Source: Promethearchaeota archaeon
GTDB taxonomy: Archaea > Asgardarchaeota > Lokiarchaeia > Sigynarchaeales > SOKP01
NCBI GenBank assembly: GCA_030605085.1
Contig: JAUWBH010000079.1
Location: forward strand, 1 to 25,116
Direction: 5' to 3'
Length of the DNA: 25,116 bases
Both the position numbers and the translations under genes were made by a program. The notes under the pieces were generated by a model. That model saw only the letters and a list, made by a program, of their open reading frames with translations. It did not search any database and was not told the DNA's origin. This document shows, piece by piece, positions 2,935 through 20,610 of the stretch. The first letter of the stretch is position 1, and each line of letters begins with the position of its first letter.

Positions 2935-3027
2935 GGCCCTTATCGGTTGGAGTGGTCTCCGACGCTGGGCTTCAAACCCAGTTATCCTGCGGAGGGATAG
3001 CGGTTCGATTCCGCATAAGGGCCGCCA
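2935..3027 (+). tRNA. tRNA-Sec (anticodon TCA), CCA encoded
   Basis: Selenocysteine tRNA. The acceptor stem is 9 bp, GGCCCTTAT (2935-2943) with ATAAGGGCC (3015-3023). Discriminator G is at 3024 and CCA is genomically encoded at 3025-3027. The D stem is 7 bp with a 4-nt loop (2946-2952/2957-2963, loop TGGT). The anticodon stem CTGGG/CCCAG holds loop CTTCAAA with TCA at 2972-2974. The long variable arm is TATCC/GGATA. The T stem is only 4 bp (GCGG/CCGC) with loop TTCGATT. The 9+4 fold, long D stem and TCA anticodon are diagnostic of archaeal/eukaryal tRNA-Sec. SepSecS lies 510 bp downstream on the same strand. A T-rich tract directly follows the gene and could act as terminator. Confidence 0.96.
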
Positions 3028-3536: not shown

Positions 3537-4913
3537 ATGTGGTTCCAAATGGTTGATTTCAATAAATTAATTGAATTCTTTAGAAACACATCTATTCCCC
3601 AAAATATGTTAAATAGAGGGCAATTAGTAATAGATAATTTCCTAAAACCAATGAAAATACTTTTCGAGCAAAAAAATGTTCCAATAAATCCATGGAACGA
3701 CGAGCAGATTAAATTTTTGCTTCAAACTCTTTCGAATATGGATACTGACAAAGATAGTAATGCCGCGCGTGTAGGCGAGAGGGAAGCGAGAATTGCCTCT
3801 AAGTTGCATTTAGAAACATCTGGAGGTTTTTGTCATGGCGTTGGTAGAAGTGGTTTTTTAACAGCTCCACAACCGAAAGCTCCTGGTGCCTCTATTATGT
3901 ACGAATTGTCAAATTTTTTAGCACGAAACTTTCTGAAAAATTATGGCTTGCCAAATATAGAAAAAGCAATAGTTGTTCCGCTATGTACGGGGATGTCGTT
4001 GGCATTATGTTTAAGTGCCCTAAAACCAGATTGGAATAGCAGTAATTCAATTAACAAGAGAACTATCCTATTGCCAAGAATTGATCATCAGTCGATATTA
4101 AAAGCTTTTGATTTAATAGGACTTAATACGAAAATTATTGATGGAAAAATTTTTGGAGATGCTGTAAGAGTACCAGTTGAAGATATTAAAAAAAGTTTTG
4201 ATGATAATTGTTTCGCTGTAGTTTCAATTACAAGTTTCTTTCCACCAAGAGAACACGATGATATAAAAGAAATTAGCAAATTTTCTAAAGAAAAAAATCT
4301 CGTACATATTATTATTAATGCATATGGCGTTCAAAGCCCTGAATGGATGAAATTAATTCGATCTGCAATCGATGCAGGAAGAGTTGATGCAATTATTCAA
4401 TCAACAGATAAAAATTTCCTTACTCCTATTGGTGGAGCTGTAATAGCTTCTCCTAAAAAAGAGATTATAACTAAGATTAGTCAAACATACGCCGGTCGTG
4501 CATCTGCAACTCCCGTGGTTAATTTCTTAATTTCTATGCTTTCATTAGGAATTAATGGTTATCAAAAATTACTACAAGAACAACAGCAAAATCGCAAAAT
4601 TCTCGAAGAAAAATTAAAAGAAATTGGAGTAAATATAAACGAAAGGGTATTAAATATTTTTAATCCAGTTGCCGTAGCGATCTCTCTTGAAAATTTGAAA
4701 AAAAATCAATTATCTGCTCTTGGAGGTGCTCTATATAATTTAAGAGTTACGGGACCAAGAGTCTATAATCCCACCGAAGACTCATTTGGTGCCTGCTGTA
4801 ATAATTATCCTACACCATATATAGTAATGAACGCTGCAATTGGAGCAGAATCTAAAGACATAATTAATGCTGTCGAGAGATTTGAAAAAGCTTACAATCA
4901 AATAACTCAATAA
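3537..4913 (+). CDS. spcS: O-phosphoseryl-tRNA(Sec) selenium transferase (SepSecS)
   Basis: PLP-dependent enzyme that converts O-phosphoseryl-tRNA(Sec) to selenocysteinyl-tRNA(Sec) with selenophosphate, the last step of Sec synthesis in archaea and eukaryotes. Length is 458 residues, normal for the family. The glycine/arginine motif GGFCHGVGRSG is at residues 96-106, followed by APQPKAPGAS, both hallmarks of SepSecS/SLA proteins. The PLP lysine motif STDKNFLTPIGGA puts the Schiff-base Lys at 292. The C-terminal substrate loop TGPRVYNPTEDSFGACCNNYPTPY is also recognisable. The first ATG gives MWFQMVDF; the ATG at 3549 is an equally possible start. It is next to tRNA-Sec. PSTK, SelD and SelB are not in the window. 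Function is confident; the exact start is less certain. Confidence 0.95.
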   Translation: MWFQMVDFNKLIEFFRNTSIPQNMLNRGQLVIDNFLKPMKILFEQKNVPINPWNDEQIKFLLQTLSNMDTDKDSNAARVGEREARIASKLHLETSGGFCHGVGRSGFLTAPQPKAPGASIMYELSNFLARNFLKNYGLPNIEKAIVVPLCTGMSLALCLSALKPDWNSSNSINKRTILLPRIDHQSILKAFDLIGLNTKIIDGKIFGDAVRVPVEDIKKSFDDNCFAVVSITSFFPPREHDDIKEISKFSKEKNLVHIIINAYGVQSPEWMKLIRSAIDAGRVDAIIQSTDKNFLTPIGGAVIASPKKEIITKISQTYAGRASATPVVNFLISMLSLGINGYQKLLQEQQQNRKILEEKLKEIGVNINERVLNIFNPVAVAISLENLKKNQLSALGGALYNLRVTGPRVYNPTEDSFGACCNNYPTPYIVMNAAIGAESKDIINAVERFEKAYNQITQ

Positions 4914-5048
4914 TACTATAATTTTTTTCATTATAAAATCGATTAATTCCTATACTTTGTGTATGGGCAAAAAAAAAAAAAGTTTTCGTTTGATAGTATC
5001 ATGTAGATATTACAGCTTATTATAACAAAATTTGCTGCTTTTGAATTC

Positions 5049-5335
5049 ATGGACTTTACTAAAAGCGTGACGCCTTAACTCAAAATAAGAAGTACTCTGA
5101 TAAATTAAACACTGCTATAACGACGCTCAAAAAATATAAATCGGAAATCATAGCATTTGCAAGAGTCTTTCTCGAACATCCAGAATTAGGGAAAACCTGT
5201 CGTTCTAACATGGAATGGCTCAATAAACGCGTGAAAGCGCCATTTAAAGCAAGTTTGAATCGACAAGGTCTCGATCACATTGTAAATCGCTTGCAATTAC
5301 AGCTGGGATGCGAAGTGCGCAATTTTATTAAGTAA
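5049..5335 (+). pseudogene. Frame-broken short ORF of foreign-looking composition
   Basis: An open frame of 90 codons (5063-5335) has no usable start before an ATG at 5210. An ATG at 5049 in another frame begins MDFTK and then stops at 5078. One extra A in the AAAA run at 5061-5064 would join the two into a basic ~95-residue protein with central motif FARVFLEHPELGKTC and C-terminus QLGCEVRNFIK. The segment is clearly richer in G+C than the flanking DNA. I do not recognise the family. It could be a decayed mobile-element or horizontally acquired gene, or an intact gene with a homopolymer sequencing error. Confidence 0.45.
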
Positions 5336-5467
5336 GAAAAAATAATTTAAATATACACAAGATTTAGGAATTAATCATAAAATCGAAAAAAAAAAATATA
5401 AAAACTATAAATTTTATTTTTATTTTAATAAGAATTATAATAATAATTACAAAAGAGTTTAGCATTC

Positions 5468-6148
5468 ATGGAAAATAGACTGTTAAATCAATTCAATAAT
5501 GTAATTAGCTCTCAATGGCTTACAACTAACATTTCCGTTAATTACGAGCCTTTAAATCATCGAACTTTATTTGAACTTGCGTATCATACTTGTAATTCGG
5601 TAGGAACAAGAAATATCTTCATAAAACTATCCCAAGACGAAAATAAAGGTGGCTCAAAAGCAATTCTCTATTCAAATACCAAAAAGTTTACTACTATAGA
5701 AGCTTTGGATGATTCCTTAGAAATAAAAAAGTATTTTGGTGAAGGAAATACAGGAGATAAATTAATAAAAATCGTAAAACCGATGCTTGAAAAAAGAAAA
5801 GAGAATTTGGCTGCTAAAGAAAAAGATATGAAAGAACAAATTTTAAAAACTATTTTAGTCGAACGTAAGTTAGACGAATGTGCAAATTTAATTATGATTA
5901 AGGATATTAATAGAAAAGTATATTTTGCGATTGGAGATGCTCGCGAAAGCGCAGCCATTGTGCCTATGTTTATGGAAGCAGATGGAGCTAGCCTTGTGCA
6001 ATTGGCTTTAAATAAATGGATGACTGAAACGCAAAAACTCGACCAAGAAAAATATTTTCCGGAATCTCATGTCCCTGGTCTGCTAAAAAACTTGATTTCC
6101 ATTAAAAAATGGATTCTAAATTTAATTTCCACAAATTTAGATAAATAA
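5468..6148 (+). CDS. Hypothetical protein, 226 residues
   Basis: Not recognised. It begins with an ATG after an AT-rich leader containing a TATA-like stretch near 5396-5403. It has no clear signal peptide or membrane span. The N-terminal half looks alpha/beta (IFIKLSQDENKGGSKAILY at about 50-68). The middle is a highly charged helix, likely coiled coil (residues ~100-130, KRKENLAAKEKDMKEQILK). The C-terminal half again looks alpha/beta, with VYFAIGDARESAAIVPMF near 160. It stands alone between a broken ORF and the HTH/TnpB module, and nothing in the context gives a function. Codon use is like the neighbours, and an intact 226-codon frame at this AT content supports a real gene. Confidence 0.7.
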   Translation: MENRLLNQFNNVISSQWLTTNISVNYEPLNHRTLFELAYHTCNSVGTRNIFIKLSQDENKGGSKAILYSNTKKFTTIEALDDSLEIKKYFGEGNTGDKLIKIVKPMLEKRKENLAAKEKDMKEQILKTILVERKLDECANLIMIKDINRKVYFAIGDARESAAIVPMFMEADGASLVQLALNKWMTETQKLDQEKYFPESHVPGLLKNLISIKKWILNLISTNLDK

Positions 6149-6219
6149 CACGAATCTCCTTATCTTAAATTATTGAAATTATTTCAATATCGCCTTTAAA
6201 AAAGGATATATTAATCAAA

Positions 6220-6549: not shown

Positions 6550-7758
6550 ATGAGACTAACTGAAATAATTCAGGTACCGTATTCTGAAGAATTGTCAGAA
6601 ATATGCCACTTGGCTAAGAATCTGTATAATTTAGCGAATTGGTACGTGAGACAAGATTTCTTTCATTTGAACAATATCCTCAATTACTACGATCTAGATT
6701 TCATTCTTAAGGATAAAGAAGCGTATAGAGCACTCCCTTCTCAGACTTCTCAGCAAATTCTAAGATACGTAAGTAGAGACTGGAGGTCTTATTTTAGAGG
6801 CTTAAGAGAATATAAAAAAGATTACAAAAAATTCAAAAGAAAACCCAGGATACCCGGATATAAAAAGAAGAATGGAGAATCCATCGTAATTTTTACAAAT
6901 CAACAATGTAGAATTAAAGAAGAGTTTCTTTATTTTCCAAAAAAGGTTAATCTTGAACCAATTAAAACAAGAATGCAAAATAAATTGAAAGAAGTGAGAA
7001 TAATACCATTAGGGTGTTGCTATAAAATCGAGATTGTGTACGAGAAAAAAGCTCCGGATTTAGGATTAGATAAAAATAACATTTTAGCGATTGATTTAGG
7101 ATTGAACAATCTTATAACTGCTGTAAACAATATCGGTCAAAATCCGATTATTATTAAGGGTAAGGTTTTGAAATCTATAAATCAATTTTACAACAAACAA
7201 TTAGCGTATTATAGAAGTATTGAAAACAAGAAAGGCAATTTTTCTGATACTAAAAGAATTTTGAAATTACATTTGAAACGAAATAATAAAATAACTACGT
7301 TATTTCATCGAATTTCACGATCCGTTGTAGATTATTGCGTTCAAAACGACATTGGAACGATTGTAATTGGATGTAATCAAGGCTGGAAGCAAAAAATAAA
7401 CATAGGAAAAAGAAACAATCAAAATTTCGTTCAAATTCCTTTTCGTAAATTATTACAACAAATTAAATATAAATCCGAATTAGTAGGAATACAATTCGAA
7501 ACGGATGACGAGTCTTATACTTCTAAATGTAGTTTCTTAGACAACGAAGAAATCAAAAAACACGATAAATATCTTGGCACACGAATAAGGCGAGGGTTAT
7601 TTCGAGCTTCAAACGGAACGACTATTAACGCCGACGTGAACGCGGCGTATAATATCCTGAAAAAAGCATTCCCAAATTCCGTAGCGGTTGATGGGATAGA
7701 GGCATTCGGACTAATGCCGCAAATAATTCAACAAAACATCGTTGATAGTATTATTTGA
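6550..7758 (+). CDS. tnpB: TnpB, RNA-guided nuclease (IS607/IS605 OrfB family)
   Basis: TnpB proteins are omega-RNA-guided DNA nucleases of IS200/IS605 and IS607 elements, ancestral to Cas12. Length of 402 residues is normal. RuvC-I is ILAIDLGLNN with catalytic Asp at 182. RuvC-III is INADVNAAYNI with Asp at 362. At the usual RuvC-II position the motif is TIVIGCNQGWKQ, with Gly274 in place of Glu. A Glu at 321 in DDESYTSK is the likely replacement, as in the TnpB clades that have this motif. The usual four-Cys zinc ribbon is absent (only CSFLD after TSK). An N-terminal wedge/REC-like region occupies residues 1-170. The frame is intact, so the protein is probably active. The 3' end is duplicated at 23149-23284. 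Confidence 0.93.
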   Translation: MRLTEIIQVPYSEELSEICHLAKNLYNLANWYVRQDFFHLNNILNYYDLDFILKDKEAYRALPSQTSQQILRYVSRDWRSYFRGLREYKKDYKKFKRKPRIPGYKKKNGESIVIFTNQQCRIKEEFLYFPKKVNLEPIKTRMQNKLKEVRIIPLGCCYKIEIVYEKKAPDLGLDKNNILAIDLGLNNLITAVNNIGQNPIIIKGKVLKSINQFYNKQLAYYRSIENKKGNFSDTKRILKLHLKRNNKITTLFHRISRSVVDYCVQNDIGTIVIGCNQGWKQKINIGKRNNQNFVQIPFRKLLQQIKYKSELVGIQFETDDESYTSKCSFLDNEEIKKHDKYLGTRIRRGLFRASNGTTINADVNAAYNILKKAFPNSVAVDGIEAFGLMPQIIQQNIVDSII

Positions 7759-18451: not shown

Positions 18452-18515
18452 TCTAAATAATAATTTATTTCAATTTTAATAATATCAACTAAATTTTATT
18501 TTACTTTAACTTTAA

Positions 18516-18678
18516 GCAGCGGTAGCCTAGCCTGGTAAGATTTTTCTACATGAAAAGCCTAGATAGACGCTGGCTTGGAGTAGATTATTGTAATCCCCCC
18601 GATAAGCCAGTGCGCGTATGCGCTCGAGGGTTCGAATCCCTCCGTCTTGCTCGGAGAACGAAAATCCCTCCCGCTGCG
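18516..18678 (+). tRNA. tRNA-Ser (GGA) interrupted by three introns
   Basis: Acceptor GCAGCGG (18516-18522) pairs perfectly with CCGCTGC (18671-18677), with discriminator G at 18678. Class II variable arm: GCGC-GTAT-GCGC (from 18612). Anticodon stem CTGGC/GCCAG with GGA at 18577-18579. Intron 1 (18538-18564, 27 nt) lies in the D-loop; its ends are ambiguous by 3 nt because AGA is repeated. Intron 2 (18581-18604, 24 nt) lies after position 37, with central helix TTGG/CCGA and bulges AGT/TAA. Intron 3 (18637-18664, 28 nt) splits the T-loop between 59 and 60, with central helix TTCG/CGAA, both bulges AAT, and outer helix GAGGG/CCCTC. Splicing gives an 84-nt tRNA with T arm GAGGG-TTCGAAT-CCCTC. 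One C-A mismatch remains in the D stem. CCA is not encoded. Confidence 0.88.
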
Positions 18679-18743
18679 CTTTTTAATTATTTCAGTCTAT
18701 TTAAAATTGAAGGGTCAAAATCAAAGAAAAAGAAAAATTTTAA

Positions 18744-18752
18744 TTTATATAA
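18744..18752 (+). promoter_or_regulatory. TATA box for the leuA leader transcript
   Basis: TTTATATAA matches the archaeal TATA consensus. A start about 25 nt downstream (~18776) would give a leader of ~220 nt before the leuA ATG and include the small ORF at 18796. Confidence 0.5.
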
Positions 18753-18795
18753 TAGTTTTTATAATTAATTAACAATTCTTTAAGGATTTATTAAA

Positions 18796-18903
18796 ATGAA
18801 AAAGCTTCAAACTAAAAGTTATTCTAGAACTAAAGTCTTTTTGAAGCAAGAATCTCCTTTAGGATTGTTAGGGTTATTAAATCTTTTATTATTGTTACTA
18901 TAA
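18796..18903 (+). CDS. Leu-rich 35-residue leader peptide upstream of leuA
   Basis: A small ORF with ATG, preceded by AAGGA 9 nt upstream. The first 21 residues are basic/polar. The last 14 codons contain 11 Leu (ending GLLGLLNLLLLLL, then TAA), using TTA, TTG, CTT and CTA. The next gene is 2-isopropylmalate synthase, the committed step to leucine. Runs of the regulatory amino acid's codons just before a stem-loop are the hallmark of bacterial attenuation leaders such as leuL. I infer a translation-coupled leucine sensor. The alternative is chance: AT-rich DNA favours TTA/ATT codons and the ORF is short. Confidence 0.6.
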   Translation: MKKLQTKSYSRTKVFLKQESPLGLLGLLNLLLLLL

Positions 18904-18959
18904 GCCTTCTCTCGTTCTATAAGAATCGGGCTTAATGGGTTCTTATAAACAGAAAAGGC
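18904..18959 (+). promoter_or_regulatory. Stem-loop directly after the leucine leader ORF
   Basis: Begins at the base after the leader stop codon. Nested pairs are GCCTT/AAGGC (18904-18908/18955-18959), GTT/AAC and TATAAGAA/TTCTTATA (18918-18925/18940-18947), with a 14-nt loop. A second stem inside the leader ORF, GCTTCAAA/TTTGAAGC (18804-18811/18840-18847), is topologically incompatible with CTAAAG/CTTTAG (18830-18835/18857-18862), so alternative folds exist. No U-run follows, so control may act on translation or on transcript elongation rather than by a bacterial-type terminator. Confidence 0.6.
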
Positions 18960-18996
18960 GTGCAAATGTTGAATAAATTAAAGTAGGTTAAAGAAA

Positions 18997-20610
18997 ATGG
19001 CAGGAAAAAAAGATATTTATGTATCGTCAATGATGGAACAAATTAGGGGGTCTCTAAACCTCCCAGAACGGGCGTATTTTTTTGATACAACCCTCCGTGA
19101 CGGCGAGCAAACACCAGGGATAAGTTTTACGCACGAGGAAAAGTTATCCATTGCTCAAGCCTTAGATGTACTAAGAATAGATATAATTGAAGCTGGTTTT
19201 CCTATAACATCTCAAGGAGATTTTGAAGCTTGTCGAGACATTGCTAAATTAGGACTGGATTTGGAAGTAATAGGTTTAGCTCGAATGAACAAATTAGACA
19301 TAGATAGAGTTATAGAAGCCGATATGGACAGCATTCATGTATTTATTGCTACTTCGGATTTGCATCTGAAATCAAAATTGCAAATGACCCGGGAACAAGT
19401 ATTAGATCAAATTGCAAAAATGGTATCGCATGCAAAAGATCATTATTCAATTGTGCTATTTTCGGCAGAAGATGCAACCCGTTCGGATTTAGATTATTTA
19501 ATTAAAGCGAATCTAACCGCAATTGAAAATGGAGCTACAAGAATAAACATTCCTGACACGGTTGGAACAATCTCTCCACGAGCTTTTGGCTATATTATAA
19601 AAAAGGTTTACGAAGCAATTCCTAAAGATATTAGAATCGCTGTACATTGTCACAACGATTTTGGATTAGCTGTAGCGAATACCATTGCTGGCTTCGAAAA
19701 TGGCGCATCGGAAGCTCAAACTACAATAATGGGACTCGGAGAGCGCGCTGGAAATGCTTCTTTTGAAGAAACGGCTATGTCTATTTACGCTTTATATCAA
19801 ATTCCTATGAATATTAATACGAAAAGCATTTTTCCCACGGCGAAATTAGTAGAAAGTTATTGTGGTGGCAAAATTAAGATTGGTAGATTACAACCGTTAA
19901 TCGGTCAAAACGCTTTTGCTCACGAAGCCGGAATTCACGCACACGCAATGATACAGAACGCTCGTACGTACGAACCAATTACACCTGAATTAATCGGTAT
20001 TAAAAGGTCTGACGATGTTGAAGAAATCATTAAGCAATCAATTAAGTTAGGAAAGCACACAGGAGGCCACGCTCTTAGAGCAAAATTGGAAGATATTGGA
20101 GTACAAGCCACAGACGACCAATTTAAAAAAATAATGGAACGTGTAAAAAGTTTTGGCGATAAGGGACACGAAGTAATGGAAGAAGACTTTTTAGCAATTG
20201 TTAAAGATGTTTTAGGAGAGCTTCCAAAAGAAGAACAATATGTGATACTCGATGAATTAACTGTCTTAACTGGATCAGTTACTCCCACCTCTACTGTACG
20301 CTTGAAGATTCGTAATAATGGAAATTTCATCGAGAAAGTAGCGTCTTCTGTGGGAGTAGGTCCTGTTGATGCGTCAGTTAAGGCAATTGTTAAATGCTTT
20401 GAACCAATGGGTAGAGTTAAACTTTTGGAATATCATATTGAGGCTGTAACTGGTGGAACCGAAGCTCTTGCTAATGTTAAAGTTGAATTAATGGATTTAG
20501 AAAGTAATTATATTGTAAAAGCAAATGCTACGCACGAAGACATTGTAATGAGTTCCGTTTTAGCACTTTTGAAAGGACTAAATCGCTTAATGAAACAAAA
20601 AAATACTTAA
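18997..20610 (+). CDS. leuA: 2-isopropylmalate synthase (alpha-IPMS family)
   Basis: Condenses acetyl-CoA with 2-oxoisovalerate, the first committed step of leucine synthesis. 537 residues. The TIM-barrel catalytic domain begins FFDTTLRDGEQTPGISF (28-44), with metal and substrate residues around D30/R34. HCHNDFGLAVANT (H217, H219) provides metal ligands. GLGERAGNASFEE and NAFAHEAGIHAHAM follow in the linker region. The C-terminal ~140 residues are the LeuA allosteric dimer domain, typical for feedback inhibition. Citramalate synthase and homocitrate synthase share these motifs; the Leu-codon-rich leader upstream supports LeuA. It ends 80 bp before the convergent DUF106 gene, across T-rich sequence. 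Confidence 0.87.
   Translation: MAGKKDIYVSSMMEQIRGSLNLPERAYFFDTTLRDGEQTPGISFTHEEKLSIAQALDVLRIDIIEAGFPITSQGDFEACRDIAKLGLDLEVIGLARMNKLDIDRVIEADMDSIHVFIATSDLHLKSKLQMTREQVLDQIAKMVSHAKDHYSIVLFSAEDATRSDLDYLIKANLTAIENGATRINIPDTVGTISPRAFGYIIKKVYEAIPKDIRIAVHCHNDFGLAVANTIAGFENGASEAQTTIMGLGERAGNASFEETAMSIYALYQIPMNINTKSIFPTAKLVESYCGGKIKIGRLQPLIGQNAFAHEAGIHAHAMIQNARTYEPITPELIGIKRSDDVEEIIKQSIKLGKHTGGHALRAKLEDIGVQATDDQFKKIMERVKSFGDKGHEVMEEDFLAIVKDVLGELPKEEQYVILDELTVLTGSVTPTSTVRLKIRNNGNFIEKVASSVGVGPVDASVKAIVKCFEPMGRVKLLEYHIEAVTGGTEALANVKVELMDLESNYIVKANATHEDIVMSSVLALLKGLNRLMKQKNT

What the first reader, a model, noticed from the sequence alone, without database searches (positions are those of the whole stretch)
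18744..18997. Possible leucine attenuation leader in an archaeon, upstream of leuA
A 35-codon ORF with a Shine-Dalgarno-like AAGGA ends with 11 Leu codons among its last 14 and stops exactly one base before a nested stem-loop (18904-18959). A mutually exclusive pair of stems lies inside the ORF. The next gene is alpha-isopropylmalate synthase. In bacteria this layout is amino-acid attenuation; I know of no established leader-peptide attenuator for an amino-acid operon in archaea. Chance enrichment of TTA/TTG in AT-rich DNA is the main alternative.
Basis: partly seen in the sequence, partly recalled or inferred. Interest (0 to 1): 0.87.

Follow-up and report, generated by a model that had tools for sequence, protein, structure and literature searches.

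The report
Amino-acid leader peptides in Asgard archaea
Lokiarchaeial archaea place a tiny leucine-rich gene and an RNA hairpin in front of their leucine-synthesis gene, and some also have tryptophan and histidine versions in front of tryptophan and histidine genes, which looks like the ribosome-based amino-acid sensing known from bacteria and, as far as I could find, not reported from archaea.

Summary
The window has a 35-codon ORF (18796-18903, 11 Leu in its last 14 codons) whose stop abuts a hairpin (18904-18959), 93 nt before leuA; no shuffle of 10,000 exceeded 7 Leu. The same leader stands before leuA in 35 of 36 Lokiarchaeial loci (at least 66% LeuA identity, upstream sequence available). 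Leu is kept while codons vary, and the post-stop hairpin and a stem inside the ORF covary between species. It is absent from the 29 next-best Asgard homologues. Beyond the finding, the lineage has cognate leaders before other genes: Trp-rich ones at 14 loci (before trpE 5, a trpE remnant 1, trpD 3, a TrpB-like gene 4, unclear 1), His-rich ones before hisIE (6 of 15 loci read) and Leu-rich ones before leuS (5 of 5). I conclude that these are ribosome-sensing leader peptides: a ribosome slowed at the terminal cognate codons covers the base of the hairpin. The output step is not shown. leuA leaders lack a consistent U-tract, a supported antiterminator and a hidden ribosome-binding site, so they are not the textbook trp/leu attenuator. 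I found no archaeal precedent in the searches made.

The parts
18733..18746 (+). AT-rich TATA-like element, inferred promoter of the leader-leuA transcript
   Evidence: bases 18734, 18738-18740 and 18743 lie in columns at least 90% invariant in the 33-sequence alignment A2; function inferred from position
18782..18786 (+). AAGGA, Shine-Dalgarno-like site of the leader ORF
   Evidence: sequence
18796..18903 (+). leader ORF, 35 codons plus TAA, C-terminal Leu run (codons 22-35)
   Evidence: relatives; 0 of 10,000 shuffles reach 8 Leu
18804..18811 (+). 5' arm of stem A (GCTTCAAA, leader codons 3-6)
   Evidence: own-versus-cross duplex test S1:S2, 0 of 5000 permutations, 33 sequences; 3 of 5000 with 13 thinned representatives
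18840..18847 (+). 3' arm of stem A (TTTGAAGC, leader codons 15-18), just before the Leu run
18859..18900 (+). Leu-codon run; each of the last four codons is Leu in 30-33 of 34 leaders
18904..18959 (+). stem C, hairpin starting at the first base after the stop codon
   Evidence: hairpin at this place in 35 of 35 loci, mean z -3.5; S3:S4 0 of 5000 permutations
18984..18988 (+). TAGGT, Shine-Dalgarno-like site of leuA
   Evidence: AGGT 11-13 nt before the leuA start in most of the 34 loci listed
18997..20610 (+). leuA, 2-isopropylmalate synthase
   Evidence: NF002085, 582.8 bits against cut-off 517

Best explanation
The region 18733-18996 is the regulatory leader of leuA. A ribosome translates the 35-codon leader, and the supply of charged leucyl-tRNA decides how long it stays on the Leu run that ends at the stop codon. 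While it sits on the last few Leu codons its leading edge covers the 5' base of the hairpin that begins right after the stop. Once it has run through and left, the hairpin forms and lowers leuA expression, most likely by making RNA polymerase pause or terminate early. A second stem joins leader codons 3-6 to codons 15-18; it probably either holds the polymerase until the first ribosome arrives or limits reloading of the leader. Shown by sequence: the ORF, the Leu run, stems A and C, their conservation and covariation, and cognate Trp, His and leuS leaders in the lineage. Inferred: translation, stalling, the footprint geometry, the direction of control and the output step.
For: Leader in 35 of 36 close leuA loci. 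Leu at 345 of 544 codons in the last 16 of 34 leaders, against 23 and 49 of 544 in the other two frames, with all six Leu codons used. Hairpin 0-5 nt after the stop in 35 of 35, z below -2 in 25, against 0 of 34, 0 of 34 and 4 of 35 in three control stretches. Stems A and C bind better within than between species, 0 of 5000 permutations each (33 sequences), also after thinning to 13 representatives below 84% LeuA identity, 3 and 0 of 5000. A leuC-family gene lies directly behind leuA in 5 of 15 genomes (coordinates). Cognate leaders elsewhere: trpE type in 7 of 227 genomes, trpD/TrpB-like type in 7 of 79, hisIE 6 of 15 loci read, leuS 5 of 5 loci. A scanner for 'aa-rich ORF end plus hairpin' gave 32 hits at leuA and 10 others in 373,130 bases of 36 loci.
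Against: No expression, RNA or protein data. One close relative lacks the leader (L111, 69% LeuA identity) and L026 has a weak run (6 Leu of 16). The longest T-run between stop and leuA is 6 or more in only 3 of 35, so an archaeal U-tract terminator is not visible. RNAalifold on the plain MAFFT alignments returned no pairs at all, which I put down to arms of unequal length falling out of register. The stem test does not model a tree beyond thinning, and 12 pairings were tried; S1:S3 also scored 40 of 5000. Ten of 35 hairpins have z above -2. The Trp stop-spanning stems are not unusually stable against shuffles (z 0 to -2.6). No convincing cognate leader near thrC (28 loci), pheA (11), ilvC (20) or leuC-family genes (15, of which 12 not next to leuA) among the top candidates printed.
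Confidence: 0.8

Rival explanations
1. Classical bacterial attenuator: stalling on Leu codons frees segment 2 to pair with segment 3 (antiterminator), otherwise 3:4 forms an intrinsic terminator.
For: Stem 1:2 (inside the ORF) and stem 3:4 (after the stop) both exist and covary. T is about 50% in the first five bases after the hairpin. T-runs of 5 or more follow 7 of 7 trpE-type Trp leaders within 170 nt.
Against: 2:3 pairing is not better within than between species (751 of 5000; 974, 559, 93 and 1104 of 5000 in the 32-, 19-, 13- and 9-sequence sets). The Leu codons lie downstream of segment 2, the reverse of the bacterial order (recalled). No consistent U-tract before leuA.
Confidence: 0.1
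2. Translational attenuation: the leader ribosome changes access to the leuA start site.
For: Stop-to-ATG distance is 87-95 nt in 25 of 35, and 86-87 nt for 5 of 6 His leaders, which looks constrained.
Against: The leuA start region needs on average only 3.85 kcal/mol to open with no ribosome and 3.37 with one at the last codon; easier by over 1 kcal/mol in 9 and harder in 3 of 34 loci. Pairing of the Leu run with the start region is no better within than between species (4620 of 5000).
Confidence: 0.2
3. Factor-dependent termination: a ribosome on the leader shields the U-rich nascent RNA from FttA, and its release exposes it, with the hairpin as a polymerase pause.
For: FttA prefers U-rich RNA, and the authors hypothesise that it and a coupled ribosome exclude each other (PMC11616081, passages). 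The Leu run itself is U-rich, and the leuS hairpins have U-rich loops.
Against: Trp and His runs are not U-rich. Asgard FttA was not examined here. Purely inferential.
Confidence: 0.3
4. The ORF encodes a small hydrophobic membrane peptide with a job of its own.
For: The C-terminus is a hydrophobic Leu run.
Against: The run is broken by charged or polar residues in several relatives (for example L021 DLDLLLL, L027 LELHLLLIL). No Pfam match. Cognate Trp and His versions exist before trp and his genes.
Confidence: 0.04
5. Chance enrichment of TTA/TTG in AT-rich DNA.
For: The region is AT-rich and TTA is the commonest Leu codon (229 of 345).
Against: 0 of 10,000 shuffles reach 8 Leu; recurrence in 35 of 36 loci; Leu in 23 and 49 of 544 codons in the other frames; CTN codons are used too.
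Confidence: 0.01

Closest known systems
Leader-peptide attenuators of bacterial leu, trp and his operons (E. coli type)
   Same: Short ORF with codons for the end product before the biosynthetic gene, with RNA stems in and after the ORF; inferred sensing of charged tRNA by a ribosome (trp and his designs: PMC1183508, passages).
   Different: Archaeal host; codon run at the very end of the ORF; hairpin abuts or spans the stop codon; no supported antiterminator; no consistent U-tract before leuA.
Histidine leader peptides before hisS/hisZ in bacilli (PMC2965389, passages)
   Same: Leader peptide with cognate codons, also before an aminoacyl-tRNA synthetase gene, as with leuS here.
   Different: Bacterial, and found through Rho-independent terminators.
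ermC-type translational attenuation (recalled; named in a passage of PMC2965389)
   Same: A stalled leader ribosome alters a downstream hairpin.
   Different: There the hairpin hides the downstream start site (recalled); here the leuA start is open.
tnaC-type control, a ribosome at the leader stop blocking factor-dependent termination (recalled)
   Same: A ribosome held at the end of the leader would decide the fate of the RNA just behind the stop.
   Different: TnaC senses free Trp through its nascent chain and involves Rho (recalled); here there are many cognate codons, and archaea use FttA.

Membership tests
Leader-peptide (ribosome-mediated) control of amino-acid genes | Short ORF directly upstream on the same strand, rich in codons of the pathway's product | tested here: met
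   35 of 36 leuA loci; Leu 345 of 544
Leader-peptide (ribosome-mediated) control of amino-acid genes | Amino acid conserved while synonymous codons vary | tested here: met
   per-column codon table, for example position -5: TTA 13, CTC 9, CTT 6, CTA 1 of 34
Leader-peptide (ribosome-mediated) control of amino-acid genes | Conserved RNA hairpin whose formation depends on ribosome position | tested here: inconclusive
   hairpin and adjacency conserved and covarying; dependence on the ribosome not testable here
Leader-peptide (ribosome-mediated) control of amino-acid genes | Expression of the gene responds to charged cognate tRNA through translation of the leader | not testable with these tools
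   no expression data
Classical transcription attenuator (alternative 2:3 / 3:4 hairpins) | Antiterminator pairing 2:3, exclusive with 1:2 and 3:4 | tested here: not met
   751 of 5000 permutations as good; thinned sets 974, 559, 93 and 1104 of 5000
Classical transcription attenuator (alternative 2:3 / 3:4 hairpins) | Intrinsic terminator: hairpin followed by a U-tract | tested here: not met
   leuA: longest T-run 6 or more in 3 of 35; trpE-type leaders do have T5-T8 runs within 170 nt, 7 of 7
Translational attenuator (ermC type) | Downstream ribosome-binding site hidden in the default fold | tested here: not met
   mean opening energy 3.85 versus 3.37 kcal/mol, 34 loci
Known Rfam element (T-box, riboswitch, listed leader) | Match at the family's gathering score | tested here: not met
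   only tRNA-Sec at 2935-3023 in the window

The most novel reading that the evidence does not exclude
Lokiarchaeia run an RNA-based amino-acid control network of leader peptides for leucine, tryptophan and histidine synthesis and for leucyl-tRNA synthetase. It would be the first leader-peptide control in archaea, and it uses a reduced design: a terminal cognate codon run abutting one hairpin, with no antiterminator and, for leuA, no U-tract. Ribosome and polymerase would then be functionally coupled in the archaeal group closest to eukaryotes.
Probability: 0.72. Interest if true: 0.93.

Novelty: new variant of a known kind. Interest (0 to 1): 0.9.

Why it matters
Leader-peptide attenuation is a textbook bacterial mechanism that needs a ribosome close behind the polymerase. 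A conserved, multi-operon version in Asgard archaea would show that coupled transcription and translation is used for regulation there, give archaea a form of control that does not act at promoter recruitment, and offer concrete, cheap tests (codon swaps, leader mutants) of how archaeal transcription responds to a stalled ribosome. The different design before leuA suggests an independent origin and possibly a different output step.

Tried and rejected
RNAalifold on the MAFFT alignments A1 and A2 gave no pairs; replaced by per-sequence folding with shuffles and an own-versus-cross duplex test. A2 has 33 of the 35 leaders: L020 (near-copy of L018) and L014 (cut by the contig end) were left out, and L001 is out of register in segment 1. 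Antiterminator 2:3, Leu run with the leuA start, hairpin arms with the leuA start and other pairings were tested and not supported; S1:S3 reached 40 of 5000 and is unexplained. Start-site sequestration was modelled and not supported.

Leaders were sought and none convincing seen near thrC (28 loci), pheA (11), ilvC (20) and leuC-family genes (15, of which L166, L175 and L176 lie directly behind leuA), judged on the seven best candidates printed per gene. Of the Asgard leuA homologues I read the 29 next-best loci L113-L141, none with the leader; many weaker hits were not read. In some searches I had mistyped the start of L141; one search repeats it correctly, again without a leader. For hisIE I read 15 of the 30 loci returned (L230-L244): 6 with a His leader, 8 without (L236-L243), 1 without an ORF found (L244); L245-L259 were not examined.

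The Trp pattern search gave 8 of 227 genomes, with the reversed control pattern matching in 3; G010 lies in another ORF with no such layout and was dropped, in G106 the gene behind the leader matches no family, and in G002 only about the first 40 codons of trpE remain. Only one trpE, one trpD and one TrpB-like protein were run against family models; the others are judged by likeness to these. The scan of 787,754 bases from three genomes used contigs chosen because they hold such leaders, so it is not a random sample. A search of the 5.8-billion-protein set was not run because a 35-residue low-complexity query would say little. Two of ten paper searches were not used.

Full report
What is in the window. 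Between a tRNA-like stretch and leuA lies an ORF of 35 codons, 18796-18903, MKKLQTKSYSRTKVFLKQESPLGLLGLLNLLLLLL*. Eleven of its last 14 codons are Leu. Its stop is followed without a gap by a hairpin, 18904-18959. leuA begins at 18997 and is a 2-isopropylmalate synthase by NCBIfam NF002085 above cut-off. In 10,000 dinucleotide shuffles of 18700-18996 the highest Leu count in the last 14 codons of an ATG ORF was 7 (2 shuffles) against 11. Rfam has no match there at gathering scores. No whole genome is held for the window.

Conservation before leuA. A scan for LeuA relatives gave 78 loci, and a search of 227 Asgard genomes gave more. Among Lokiarchaeial loci of at least 66% LeuA identity that have upstream sequence I count 36 distinct ones including the window. 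Thirty-five carry the leader: L001-L033 without L031, L035, L087 and the window, L014 being cut by the contig end. L018 and L020 have near-identical leaders. One, L111, does not carry it. L031 starts inside leuA and cannot be judged. L026 has a weak run (6 Leu of 16). Of the more distant Asgard homologues I read the 29 next-best loci, L113-L141; none has a Leu-run ORF ending upstream, the best count being 5 Leu of 16 (and 84 for L141, first read at a wrong place). Weaker hits were not read.

It is coding and it is about leucine. In 34 leaders the last 16 codons hold 345 Leu of 544, against 23 and 49 in the other two frames of the same DNA, one of which has 73 stops. The last four codons are Leu in 30, 31, 33 and 33 of 34. 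Codons vary: at position -5 TTA 13, CTC 9, CTT 6, CTA 1. TTA makes up 66% of leader Leu codons against 42% in leuA, so rare codons are not favoured. In 5 of 15 genomes a leuC-family gene lies directly behind leuA (coordinates), which supports a leucine pathway.

RNA structure. The 60 nt after the stop fold into a hairpin whose first paired base is 0-5 nt after the stop, 47-58 nt long, in 35 of 35; mean z is -3.5, and 25 of 35 are below -2. Three control stretches gave 0 of 34, 0 of 34 and 4 of 35. I tested pairing by comparing duplex energies of two segments from the same species with those mixed between species (33 sequences, 12 segment pairs tried). The hairpin arms gave 0 of 5000 permutations (z -12.5). 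A second stem, leader codons 3-6 with codons 15-18, gave 0 of 5000 (z -5.8). Thinning to LeuA identity below 84% (13 sequences) left 0 and 3 of 5000. RNAalifold on the plain alignments found no pairs; the arms differ in length between lineages. A possible antiterminator (segment 2 with the hairpin's 5' arm) was not supported (751 of 5000; in thinned sets 974, 559, 93 and 1104 of 5000). S1:S3 at 40 of 5000 is unexplained.

The output step. T is about 50% in the first five bases after the hairpin and falls after that. The longest T-run between stop and leuA is 5 or more in 11 of 35 and 6 or more in 3 of 35, so a U-tract terminator is not evident. The leuA start region is open with or without a modelled ribosome (means 3.85, 3.37 and 3.47 kcal/mol, 34 loci), so simple start-site hiding is not evident either. 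The stop-to-start distance is 87-95 nt in 25 of 35. I therefore commit to ribosome sensing (confidence 0.8) and leave transcription pausing or termination as the likeliest output, unproven.

The same design elsewhere in the lineage: tryptophan. Near trpE in three genomes I found a Trp-rich ORF ending W(F/V)W(V/A)WRWH(A/V)*. A pattern search over 227 genomes matched 8 (reversed control: 3). Seven are such short ORFs: five have a TrpE-like ORF behind them, in G002 only about the first 40 codons of trpE remain, and in G106 the next ORF matches no family; G010 is a false hit. Each of the seven has a short hairpin spanning the stop, with paired changes (CACGC/GCGTG in L206, GCACGT/ACGTGC in L204), though its energy is not unusual against shuffles (z 0 to -2.2). 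A second Trp type..W.W.WR(A/S)*, occurs in 7 of 79 genomes (up to 2 mismatches; reversed control 0), before trpD in 3 and before a TrpB-like gene in 4. Its stop-spanning stem reads GCGCG/CGCGC in three and GCGT/ACGC-like in four (z -0.4 to -2.6). G008 has one more Trp leader, before a GNAT-methyltransferase gene.

Histidine and leuS. His-rich ORFs (for example SHFHHHQHHE*, YLHHWLHHE*) precede hisIE in 6 of 15 loci read, ending 86-87 nt before it in 5 of the 6; the hairpin starts 0-1 nt after the stop (z -0.9 to -6.2). Archaeal-type leuS was found in 5 of 14 genomes, and Leu-rich ORFs precede it in 5 of 5 loci, 4 found by scan and L343 by eye. Four share ACAAATCC/GGATTTGT-like arms (z -0.7 to -4.1), and L343 has CAATACC with GGTATTG. 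In 897 small intergenic ORFs from 787,754 bases of contigs chosen because they hold such leaders, the Leu, His and three Trp leaders ranked 4, 5 and 9-11 by amino-acid bias. No convincing leader was seen near thrC, pheA, ilvC or leuC-family genes.

Literature. Searches for archaeal leader peptides or attenuation listed no archaeal case. Only openly licensed papers were searched, and several lists were cut (12 of 386, 15 of 51, 15 of 30 and 10 of 144 shown). The one methanogen paper listed mentions attenuation of the ilv operon in general and cites a corynebacterial leader peptide (PMC13158618, passages). A 2010 survey said that leader-peptide systems had until then been shown only in Proteobacteria and Actinobacteria, and added bacilli (PMC2965389, passages). 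The abstract start of PMC8448881 calls recruitment of polymerase and initiation factors the only known target of transcription regulation in archaea (listing). PMC8116511 (passages) describes archaeal termination at poly(U) or by FttA and does not contain the word attenuation. PMC11616081 (passages) hypothesises that FttA and a coupled ribosome exclude each other.

Verdict. The interpretation as a leucine-sensing leader is well supported. The claim that it is the bacterial attenuator is not: two of its defining features failed for leuA.

Noticed in passing
window 2935-3027 and 3537-4913: tRNA-Sec gene followed by a gene that by eye looks like SepSecS (recalled, not tested), so this lineage encodes parts of a selenocysteine system.
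   Followed up: no
window 18515-18680: tRNA-like sequence with acceptor arms GCAGCGG/CCGCTGC that by eye looks like tRNA-Ser(GGA) broken by several introns; ARAGORN finds nothing there by default and an implausible tRNA-Gly when introns are allowed.
   Followed up: partly
window 6550-7758: ORF of 402 aa that by eye resembles an IS605-type TnpB (recalled, not tested).
   Followed up: no
L216 (G008), leader stop at 6170 on the - strand, gene 4803-5957 -: Trp leader (..ISWFWVLHWHA*) before a GNAT plus methyltransferase fusion of unknown role, behind the trp cluster; suggests a Trp-related function.
   Followed up: partly
L207 (G002), about 136 nt after the Trp leader stop: The Trp leader and about the first 40 codons of trpE remain while the rest of trpE is gone; no TrpE match in this genome at E 1e-40. 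It looks like a decaying trp locus.
   Followed up: partly
L201 (G106), after the Trp leader near position 1500: Typical Trp leader, but the ORF behind it (99 aa, 1735-2031) matches no NCBIfam or Pfam family.
   Followed up: partly
L339-L343, hairpin loops after the leuS leaders: The loops are U-rich (CTTTTTCTT-like) in all five although the arms of L343 differ.
   Followed up: no
Lokiarchaeial genomes: Ketol-acid reductoisomerase: 30 of 79 genomes pass the family cut-off but only 7 with E of 1.1e-115 or better; several genomes with the leuA leader (for example G003, G106, G107, G156) have no match, so the source of the leucine precursor is unclear.
   Followed up: no
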